Shown: positions 14,394 to 59,758 of the stretch, in pieces
How positions within the stretch are numbered: the first letter of the stretch is position 1
Layout of the letters: each line of letters starts with the position of its first letter
Origin: Bradyrhizobium sp. CCGUVB1N3
GTDB taxonomy: Bacteria > Pseudomonadota > Alphaproteobacteria > Rhizobiales > Xanthobacteraceae
DNA length: 64,000 bases
Direction: 5' to 3'
Assembly: GCF_024199925.1 (NCBI RefSeq)
Contig: NZ_JANADR010000001.1
Coordinates: forward strand, 6,637,501-6,701,500
Program-made: the position numbers and the translations under genes
The notes under the pieces: generated by a model
Database searches by the model: none
What the model was told of the DNA's origin: nothing
What the model saw: the letters and a program-made list of their open reading frames with translations, nothing else

Positions 14394-14530
14394 GTCGTCC
14401 CGGCGAAGGCCGGGACCCATACCCACAGGGTGTAGTTTGGCGAAGACTCGTGGTTCGGTACTCCTACCGATCGCAGTCGATGGTTTCCGCGGTATGGATC
14501 CCGGATCAGCGCTCGCTTGTCCGGGATGAC
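14394..14530. repeat. REP-like palindromic element, copy 1
   Basis: Starts GTCGTCCCGGCGAAGGCCGG and ends with CTTGTCCGGGATGAC, a long inverted pair around a less conserved centre. Its right half reads ATGGATCCCGGATC, one base away from the IS110 target seen in copies near 57 and 58.5 kb. It lies between convergent acdS and recQ. Confidence 0.85.
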
Positions 14531-26700: not shown

Positions 26701-26828
26701 GTCGTTCCGGCGCAGGCCGGGACCCATAACCCCAGGGAGTAGTTTTGCGAAGACAAGTCGTTCGGGACTGCGACCATCCTCAATAGATGGATTCCGCGGG
26801 TATGGGTCCCGGCCTGCGCCGGGACGAC
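26701..26828. repeat. REP-like palindromic element, copy 2
   Basis: GTCGTTCCGGCGCAGGCCGG at the left pairs with CCGGCCTGCGCCGGGACGAC at the right. Its right half has ATGGGTCCCGGCCTG: the left IS110 target half is intact, the right half differs. It follows the carrier-protein gene. Confidence 0.85.
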
Positions 26829-57039: not shown

Positions 57040-57173
57040 GTCGTCCCGGCGAAGGCCGGGACCCATACCCCCAAGGGAGAAGTTGTGGCGCGAGGCAGGT
57101 AACCACGAGTCTTCGCCAAACTCCTCCCTGTGGTCATGGGTCCCGGATCTGCGCTTCGCTTGTCCGGGACGAC
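57040..57173. repeat. REP-like palindromic element, intact IS110 target copy
   Basis: GTCGTCCCGGCGAAGGCCGG at the left and CTTGTCCGGGACGAC at the right. It contains TGGGTCCCGGATC at 57137-57149, the exact uninterrupted form of the site occupied by the IS110 element 1.4 kb downstream. Same orientation as that copy. Confidence 0.9.
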
Positions 57174-58507: not shown

Positions 58508-58610
58508 GTCGTCCCGGCGAAGGCCGGGACCCATAGCCCCAGGGAGAAGTTGTTGCGCGGGCTGATAACCACGAGTCTTCGCCAAAATACTCCCTGTGGT
58601 TATGGGTCCC
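58508..58610. repeat. REP-like element, left part, split by IS110
   Basis: The left 103 bp of a REP-like copy: GTCGTCCCGGCGAAGGCCGG through ATGGGTCCC. It closely follows the 57040 copy and stops exactly where that copy continues with GGATCTGCGC. The rest resumes at 59718. Confidence 0.92.
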
Positions 58611-58769
58611 TGTGTCTTGGAAGTCTGTCATGATGAGGTGGGCGGGAAGCCGTTGGGTCCTTGGCGCTTGACGCCGTGATCCGGCCCGGTCTCCCGCCCG
58701 TTCCATCTATCAACCTGAACAGTTGCACGAGGCTGCGCTAACAGACCTCGCATCACAGGGACAGGCACC
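58611..58769 (+). ncRNA. Predicted bridge RNA of the IS110 element
   Basis: Two internal loops can be read. Target loop: outer stem 58640-58647 with 58692-58699, inner hairpin 58663-58675, left guide TGGGTCC (58654-58660) and right guide GATCCGG (58678-58684). Donor loop: outer stem CCTG/CAGG (58714-58717, 58762-58765), inner stem CGAGG/CCTCG (58728-58732, 58746-58750), left guide AACAGTTGC (58718-58726), right guide CACAGG (58754-58759). The guides equal or complement the flanking target halves and the element ends in the IS621 pattern. Exact RNA ends are not known. Confidence 0.85.
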
Positions 58770-59711
58770 GTGATCATACCCCCTCGTTACGTCGGAATCG
58801 ACGTCTCCAAACATCATCTCGATATTTTCGATGAGGCCATCGGTGTATCGGAACGCATCGTCAACGCGACACAGGCCATCACACAGCTGGTGGCGCGTTG
58901 GCGATGCGATGCGCTGGTCGTCTTCGAGGCCACGGGTGTCTATGACCTCGAGCTTCGCGAGGCACTACGTCAGGCTGGCGTCCGCTTTGCCCGGATCAAT
59001 CCGGCCCGTGCCCGTGACTTTGCCCGTGCCAGCGGCCAGCTCGCCAAGACCGACCCGATCGATGCGCGGATGCTGGCAGCCTTTGCGCGCGCCATGAAGC
59101 CCGCCACCGAGCAAGTCGCCACCCCGGCCCGTAGCGCTCTGGCAAGGTTGGCAAAACGGCGGGATCAGCTGGTCTTGATGCGCGTCCAAGAGAAGAATCG
59201 CCGCAGCGAAGCCGATGACCGCGCCATGGCCGAACGCATCAGTCGCTTTGTCGAGGTCCTCGACGGCGAGATCGAGGAGATCGAGACCGACATCCGCGCA
59301 CTGATCAAGGCCGAGCCGGAGATCTCGGATGATGCACAGTTGATGCGATCACTGCCCGGTATCGGTCCCGTGGCCTGCATGCAGCTCATCGCGCAGATGC
59401 CGGAACTCGGGCGGGTTGGACCGAAGCAGGTGGCGGCGCTCGCCGGCCTGGCTCCCTTCAACGTCGACAGCGGCGCCTACCGCGGCAAGCGCAAGATCGG
59501 CGGCGGCCGAAAACGCGTCCGCGATGCCCTCTACATGGCCGCTCTCAACGCGGTTCGCAGAGCCGCCCCCTTCAAAACCTTCTACACACGACTACGACAG
59601 GCCGGAAAGCCAGCCAAGCTCGCTCTCATCGCCGTCGCCAGGAAGCTGCTGACGGTCATCAACGCCATGATGCGTGATAGGAAGTCCTATAGACTAGAGC
59701 CAGCAATATAA
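58770..59711 (+). CDS. IS110-family transposase (DEDD recombinase)
   Basis: A 313-residue recombinase. The RuvC-like N-terminal domain has D11 (YVGIDVSKHH), E53 (VVFEATGVYD), D95 and D98 (KTDPIDAR), the DEDD tetrad. A coiled-coil linker spans about 125-185. The C-terminal Tnp domain has LPGIGPVACMQL and the nucleophilic Ser234 in FNVDSGAYRGKRKIGGGRKR. All catalytic residues are present and the frame is intact, so it looks active. GTG 58770 begins 4 bp after the last stem of the predicted bridge RNA. Confidence 0.96.
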   Translation: MIIPPRYVGIDVSKHHLDIFDEAIGVSERIVNATQAITQLVARWRCDALVVFEATGVYDLELREALRQAGVRFARINPARARDFARASGQLAKTDPIDARMLAAFARAMKPATEQVATPARSALARLAKRRDQLVLMRVQEKNRRSEADDRAMAERISRFVEVLDGEIEEIETDIRALIKAEPEISDDAQLMRSLPGIGPVACMQLIAQMPELGRVGPKQVAALAGLAPFNVDSGAYRGKRKIGGGRKRVRDALYMAALNAVRRAAPFKTFYTRLRQAGKPAKLALIAVARKLLTVINAMMRDRKSYRLEPAI

Positions 59712-59717
59712 CAGTTG

Positions 59718-59758
59718 CCGGATCTGCGCTCCGCTTCGCTGCGCTTGTCCGGGACGAC
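59718..59758. repeat. REP-like element, right part, split by IS110
   Basis: The right 41 bp: CCGGATCTGCGCT through CTTGTCCGGGACGAC, continuing the copy that begins at 58508. It carries an extra short duplication (CGCTTCGCTGCGCTT) relative to the 57040 copy. Confidence 0.92.

What the first reader, a model, noticed from the sequence alone, without database searches (positions are those of the whole stretch)
58611..59717. IS110 element whose bridge RNA can be decoded by eye and explains its insertion site
In the left end, TGGGTCC equals the left half of the target top strand and GATCCGG is the complement of the right half CCGGATC. AACAGTTGC equals the element's right end with the first core base (59710-59718), and CACAGG is the complement of CCTGTG at the left junction (58609-58614). 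Order, stems and strand sense agree with the published IS621 bridge-RNA architecture, with core CC in place of CT. All guides are present and the DEDD/Ser catalytic residues are intact, so this is a candidate programmable recombinase of small size (313 residues, 159-nt RNA region).
Basis: partly seen in the sequence, partly recalled or inferred. Interest (0 to 1): 0.88.

Follow-up and report, generated by a model that had tools for sequence, protein, structure and literature searches.

The report
CC-core IS110 element with bridge RNA
A small Bradyrhizobium jumping gene carries a guide RNA gene whose two loops spell out both the repeat it jumped into and its own ends; it belongs to a known kind of RNA-guided recombinase but appears to exchange DNA at CC where the well-studied ones use CT.

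Summary
Confirmed at its exact coordinates. 58611-59717 (1107 bp, between CC copies 58609-58610 and 59718-59719) is an IS110-group element; its recombinase matches IS621 (E 1e-35), catalytic residues kept, and its left end folds as a target loop plus donor loop. In 8 of 29 orthologous loci the flanks abut sharing exactly CC. Of 71 two-ended Bradyrhizobium copies 65 read TGGGTC|CC|GG exactly; 66 lie in a palindromic repeat, none in its other arm. Across 12 related lineages guides and targets change together (left guide 0, right guide 2 of 100,000 permutations). RNA, circle and activity are untested. New variant of a known kind.

The parts
58603..58608 (+). left half of target (TGGGTC), host repeat
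58609..58610 (+). core CC, left copy
   Evidence: single CC at 8 orthologous empty sites
58611..59717 (+). IS110-group element between the core copies, 1107 bp
58629..58634 (+). -10-like CATGAT; in the abutted circle it would lie 17 nt after TTGCCT formed by 59715-59719 plus 58611
   Evidence: consensus match only, no control run, inferred
58640..58698 (+). target-binding loop of the predicted bridge RNA
58654..58661 (+). left target guide TGGGTC-CT
58678..58684 (+). right target guide GATCCGG
58685..58685 (+). target-loop handshake base C (pairs donor G59717)
   Evidence: role inferred from IS621
58714..58765 (+). donor-binding loop of the predicted bridge RNA
58718..58726 (+). left donor guide AACAGTTGC (right end plus first core base)
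58754..58759 (+). right donor guide CACAGG (complement of CCTGTG)
58760..58761 (+). donor-loop handshake bases GA (pair target C58608 and T58607)
   Evidence: role inferred from IS621
58770..59711 (+). DEDD/Ser recombinase, 313 aa; catalytic D11, E53, D95, D98, S234 by alignment to IS621 D11, E60, D102, D105, S241
59718..59719 (+). core CC, right copy
59720..59724 (+). right half of target (GGATC)
58524..58533 (-). uninserted partner repeat (TGGGTCCCGG) about 80 nt away in inverted orientation

Best explanation
An intact IS110-group element of Bradyrhizobium that moves by bridge-RNA-guided recombination. Inferred cycle, as published for IS621: the element is cut out as a circle; joining the ends makes a promoter across the core; the left end is transcribed into a bridge RNA; its first loop pairs with the host site (left guide with the bottom strand of TGGGTC-CC, right guide with the top strand of CC-GG plus three loosely read bases), its second loop with the circle junction (AACAGTTG-CC-TGTG); a DEDD/Ser recombinase tetramer exchanges strands at the 2-bp core. 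Shown here by sequence: the element, its ends, the 2-bp CC overlap, the fold, the guide matches and their co-variation with targets. Inferred: RNA, circle, chemistry, current activity. Its clade differs from IS621 in using CC as core.
For: IS621-like recombinase with all catalytic residues. Empty orthologous sites with a single CC, 8 of 29. 71 two-ended copies in 16 genomes: 65 exactly TGGGTC|CCGG; guide-matched positions nearly invariant (68 to 71 of 71 at each of the ten) while positions outside vary; 0 in the other arm. Fixed-register test on 12 lineages: left guide 94 of 108 identical, 0 of 100,000 permutations as good; 8 distinct left guides without core 49 of 56, 2 of 100,000; right guide 75 of 84 (48 of 48 at core plus two), 2 of 100,000. 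Register-free test on 25 lineages: 0 of 100,000 for both halves. Structure: 26 pairs, 91.5% of cells paired, 14 pairs with double changes, 0 of 500 shuffles as high; slid controls at most 52.1%. Right donor guide fits in 11 of 12 lineages.
Against: No RNA or circle data. Six of 71 copies depart from TGGGTC|CCGG at one or more bases. Outer right-guide bases match only 27 of 36. B. mercantei: left-end contigs carry GATCCGG, but three right-end contigs enter CCGGCTC (left and right ends not linked). First left-guide position fits 1 of 12 and probably belongs to the linker. The left donor guide pairs no second core base, and in 5 of 12 lineages not the first either. Two further rows placed next to the clade (L146, L206) fit their right target poorly, 1 and 4 of 7. 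No Rfam family is hit.
Confidence: 0.93

Rival explanations
1. The recombinase protein itself, not an RNA, recognises the host repeat; the guide matches are leftovers or coincidence.
For: All Bradyrhizobium copies share one target, so within the genus protein recognition would look the same.
Against: Across lineages left guides and targets change together (0 of 100,000 permutations) within a strongly supported recombinase clade; the match keeps IS621's strand sense and order; insertions outside the repeat keep mainly the guide-matched bases (L015, L018, L024, L112).
Confidence: 0.03
2. An ordinary repeat-associated IS110 whose core is really CT or another dinucleotide shifted by one base, so the CC core is a register artefact.
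For: The left guide of this subclade reads CT at the core positions; donor and target differ on both sides of CC, so only empty sites and guides fix the register.
Against: Empty sites share exactly CC; the right guide ends GG in 12 of 12 and the right donor guide has GG opposite CC in 11 of 12 lineages; CT relatives align without a gap (ACAGTTG-CT-TGT against ACAGTTG-CC-TGT) and the CT row L142 has AG in the donor guide; nine of the 12 lineages have CC in the left guide too.
Confidence: 0.04
3. A degenerate copy that no longer moves.
For: A single copy of exactly this sequence in its genome, against six copies of an 86% sister.
Against: Open reading frame, catalytic residues, guides and ends all intact.
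Confidence: 0.25

Closest known systems
IS621 (E. coli; IS110 group; bridge RNA, PMC11208160, PMC11208158)
   Same: DEDD/Ser recombinase; RNA gene in the long left end; order left target guide, stem, right target guide, then left donor guide, stem, right donor guide; strand sense; target in a palindromic repeat; first handshake-guide bases; left donor guide covering the first core base only.
   Different: Core CC, not CT; left target guide pairs 6+2 bases, not 7+2 (the ninth column looks like the linker); natural right guide of 7; predicted RNA starts at the target loop, so no 5' stem-loop; -35-like hexamer lies on the core itself; recombinase only distantly similar (127 bits).
ISCro4 (solved chain 9t56)
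   Same: Same recombinase family, second-best solved relative.
   Different: Distant; its guides and core were not examined here and no ISCro4 paper was read (one search listing only).
ISEc21 / seekRNA (IS110 type, PMC11187229)
   Same: Upstream non-coding region giving a guide RNA; bottom-strand match precedes top-strand match; natural retargeting in a relative.
   Different: Intermediate-size transposase (358 aa), linear target in another IS.
IS1111 group
   Same: Same recombinase family.
   Different: RNA downstream and guide order reversed (PMC11187229); here RNA upstream and only 6 bases between stop codon and core.

Membership tests
IS110 group, bridge-RNA element | RuvC-like DEDD domain plus Tnp domain with catalytic Ser | tested here: met
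IS110 group, bridge-RNA element | long non-coding left end, short right end, no long terminal inverted repeats | tested here: met
   159 nt before the ORF, 6 nt after its stop codon; terminal repeats judged by reading the ends only
IS110 group, bridge-RNA element | structured RNA with two loops | tested here: met
IS110 group, bridge-RNA element | target guides that co-vary with target | tested here: met
IS110 group, bridge-RNA element | donor guides matching the element's own ends | tested here: met
   ends are conserved, so co-variation is seen in one lineage only (L163), and L139 mismatches
IS110 group, bridge-RNA element | 2-bp core shared by target and donor | tested here: met
IS110 group, bridge-RNA element | promoter formed at the circle junction | tested here: inconclusive
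   consensus match 8 of 12 bases with 17-nt spacing, no null control
IS110 group, bridge-RNA element | RNA expressed and bound by the recombinase | not testable with these tools
   -
IS621-like bridge RNA in the strict sense | core CT with near-invariant T | tested here: not met
   CC; published rule from PMC11208158 section 8
IS621-like bridge RNA in the strict sense | 5' stem-loop before the target loop | tested here: inconclusive
   only 29 nt lie before the target loop and they hold the predicted -10; transcript start unknown
IS1111 group | RNA in the right end, longer subterminal inverted repeats | tested here: not met

The most novel reading that the evidence does not exclude
A clade of natural bridge recombinases has switched its exchange core from CT to CC, with core target, core donor, right target guide and right donor guide changed together; and in the window's own subclade the left guide then moved to CU, so that it still pairs with CC targets by a G-U wobble while the guide's DNA (CT) no longer matches the GG of the right guides. 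That would protect the element from inserting into its own guide gene, as has apparently happened to copy L143 (and in part L193) of relatives.
Probability: 0.15. Interest if true: 0.75.

Novelty: new variant of a known kind. Interest (0 to 1): 0.5.

Why it matters
IS621 structures explain a near-invariant T at the second core base by a main-chain contact of G63, and the paper passages read report only CT, GT, AT and TT cores tested. A natural clade with C there, keeping that glycine, says the rule is not general, gives a set of recombinases that may work on CC cores, and names residues to test (for example D59 beside the core-reading loop and N231 near the catalytic serine; confounded by kinship). 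It also gives a natural case of single-base drift in a guide and of copies placed at a guide gene.

Tried and rejected
Rfam: no bridge RNA family at gathering score in the window; five chance-level hits around the element, none credible. Plasmid collection: no match. Viral contigs, one exact pattern for the donor loop: none. Strict use of the outer right guide: guide base U goes with target A in 5 of 5 copies, guide base G with A in 12 of 61 (Fisher 0.0007), but the five come from three genomes, and adding three B. mercantei right ends that are not linked to their left ends gives 5 of 8 (0.018): kept as suggestive only. Arm control: background counts (21 and 50 in 212,350 bases) used patterns of unequal length, so I rely on the count within palindromes, not on that ratio. 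Core-reading residues: 9 positions separate 12 CC from 13 CT proteins, none the published contact residue; confounded with the tree. The second bases of the handshake guides fit only 4 of 12 (target loop) and 6 of 12 (donor loop). L146/L206 also show CC at a junction but sit in C-runs and fit their guides poorly; not claimed as CC. No structure prediction was made: solved relatives made it unnecessary.

Rows dropped. One search used 25 lineages whose two ends I could recognise; loci of other lineages with unclear or nested ends (such as L143, L148, L150, L151, L154, L155, L158 to L162, L165 to L170, L077 to L082) were left out, and one copy stood for each lineage. One search left out 12 repeats of the same place, two fragment hits (L033, L037), three loci of other genera (L074 to L076) and L132 (contig edge); 14 left-end-only copies were not counted in the 71. 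L163 was first set one base off; its core is CC. The right guide was cut one column short and is replaced.

Full report
What is there. The element spans 58611-59717 between two CC dinucleotides. It holds one ORF of 313 codons, Pfam DEDD_Tnp_IS110 and Transposase_20, NCBIfam IS110 RNA-guided transposase 209.6 bits against a cut-off of 140. The only solved relatives at E<=0.001 are IS621 (1e-35) and ISCro4 (2e-33). The residues aligned with IS621 D11, E60, D102, D105 and S241 are kept in all 25 relatives compared.

Ends and core. The left flank was searched in 257 genomes of the genus and 29 orthologous loci were read besides the window's own: all lack the element; in 8 (L218, L219, L220, L223, L229, L232, L236, L238) the left and right flanks abut with exactly CC shared, four of them with TGGGTC intact; in the other 21 the repeat between the flanks differs or does not align to its edge. 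This fixes the ends and a 2-bp overlap.

Copies. The own genome has this copy and six of an 86% sister; 77 of 265 genomes gave some match, many of them short fragments. From 16 genomes I read 71 distinct two-ended copies: 65 read TGGGTC|CCGG exactly; each of the ten positions is kept in 68 to 71 of 71, while the base before T and the bases after GG vary. 66 of 71 lie in a palindromic repeat; each palindrome offers a second arm with TCCCGG in another context (..CGTC|CC|GG), and none of 71 is there. The five outside the repeat by my rule (L015, L018, L023, L024, L112) keep most guide-matched bases, L023 poorly. The window itself holds seven uninserted exact TGGGTCCCGG sites, one with the same 13 bp target 1.5 kb upstream.

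Guides against targets in other lineages. A protein search of 397 genomes of the order and 385 of the class (E<=1e-50) matched 32 and 10. Distinct left guides and their sites include TGGATT-CC, GTGCAC-CC, TGGGCC-CC, GAGACT-CC, TGGATC-CC, TGGTCC-CC and AGCAAT-CC. Register-free, 25 lineages: own left half 7.4 of 9 against 6.34 in other left ends, own right half 6.32 of 7 against 5.41, both 0 of 100,000 permutations as good; the right half without its core is weaker (p 0.014). Fixed register, 12 lineages: left guide positions 2 to 8 match 83 of 84 (the other is a wobble), position 9 matches 10 with 2 wobbles, position 1 matches 1; right guide matches 48 of 48 at core plus two and 27 of 36 beyond. 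Permutation treats lineages as exchangeable; with one row per distinct left guide (8) and no core it still gives 49 of 56, 2 of 100,000.

RNA. The 159-nt left end folds at -69.4 kcal/mol, z -3.25 against shuffles. On 16 left ends, 26 pairs of four helices are 91.5% paired with 14 doubly changed pairs, 0 of 500 shuffles as high, slid versions at most 52.1% (the structure came from the same alignment, which favours it). Layout: target-loop stem, linker CCGT, left guide, apical stem, GT, right guide, stem; then CCTG, left donor guide, stem, right donor guide, CAGG. Against the IS621 structure (PMC11208158, sections 7, 8 and 11 read) the left donor guide likewise stops at the first core base. The first handshake base of the target loop pairs the donor's last base in 12 of 12; the first of the donor loop pairs the target's last base in 10 of 12 with 2 wobbles, including L163 where both have changed. 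The second bases fit 4 and 6 of 12.

The CC core. Left and right junctions read CC in the 12 close lineages (L163 after correction) and CT in 11 more distant ones. On the recombinase tree the 12 form a branch with support 96/96 (where L163 still bore its wrong label). PMC11208158 calls the second T almost invariant in IS621 and related orthologues and explains it by G63; PMC11208160 (abstract, sections 6, 12 and part of 43, and passages) changed the core to AT, GT or TT and kept CT guides only in its natural survey. In my library searches I saw no account of a CC clade; the supplementary files, ISfinder and subscription papers could not be searched, so this is no proof of novelty. G63 is kept in the 12.

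Subclade detail. In the main Bradyrhizobium group the left guide reads CT at the core positions while targets read CC: 66 of the 66 two-ended copies whose guide region fitted my pattern; the sister lineage L028 has CC. The RNA can still pair by G-U.

Self-insertion. Of 197 oriented loci (repeats of a place included) two show a second left end starting at a first copy's left guide. L143 has the rest of the first RNA gene and part of its recombinase on the far side, as expected of one copy inserted in another's guide; L193 keeps only the left part. I found no mention of it by term search in two papers.

Junction promoter. In the circle, TTGCCT would form across the core with a 17-nt spacer to CATGAT; similar in the other CC lineages (7 or 8 of 12 consensus bases), poorer in several CT ones, no null control. 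If real, the RNA starts at the target loop, leaving no room for a 5' stem-loop, and the core base C also improves the -35 match over T. Both are inference.

Verdict. An ordinary kind of element (IS110 group with bridge RNA), very well supported, in a variant that breaks one published regularity. Interest 0.5.

Noticed in passing
L143 (second copy of G327 is L206): A complete copy sits inside another copy of the same element exactly at that copy's left target guide; the rest of the first RNA gene and a deleted recombinase follow on the far side.
   Followed up: partly
L193 (G383): Left end up to the guide is present twice in tandem, as after insertion at a sibling's guide with loss of the rest.
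   Followed up: partly
window 57137-57160: Uninserted repeat with the identical 13-bp target TGGGTCCCGGATC 1.5 kb upstream of the element.
   Followed up: no
window 57056-57146, 58524-58612, 26717-26812, 14410-14504: Target repeats come in inverted pairs about 80 nt apart in four places, a mosaic intergenic repeat.
   Followed up: no
L008, L010 to L013: A second, unrelated IS110-type element in several copies in the same genome (L009 truncated next to another transposase), with its own constant ends.
   Followed up: no
L136, L137, L138, L074 and copies: Relatives in other genera also sit mostly in genus-specific palindromic or repeated sequences that differ from each other.
   Followed up: partly
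L163 (G871): Donor end TATGTG instead of TGTG with donor guide CATAGG instead of CACAGG: a natural joint change of donor and donor guide.
   Followed up: yes
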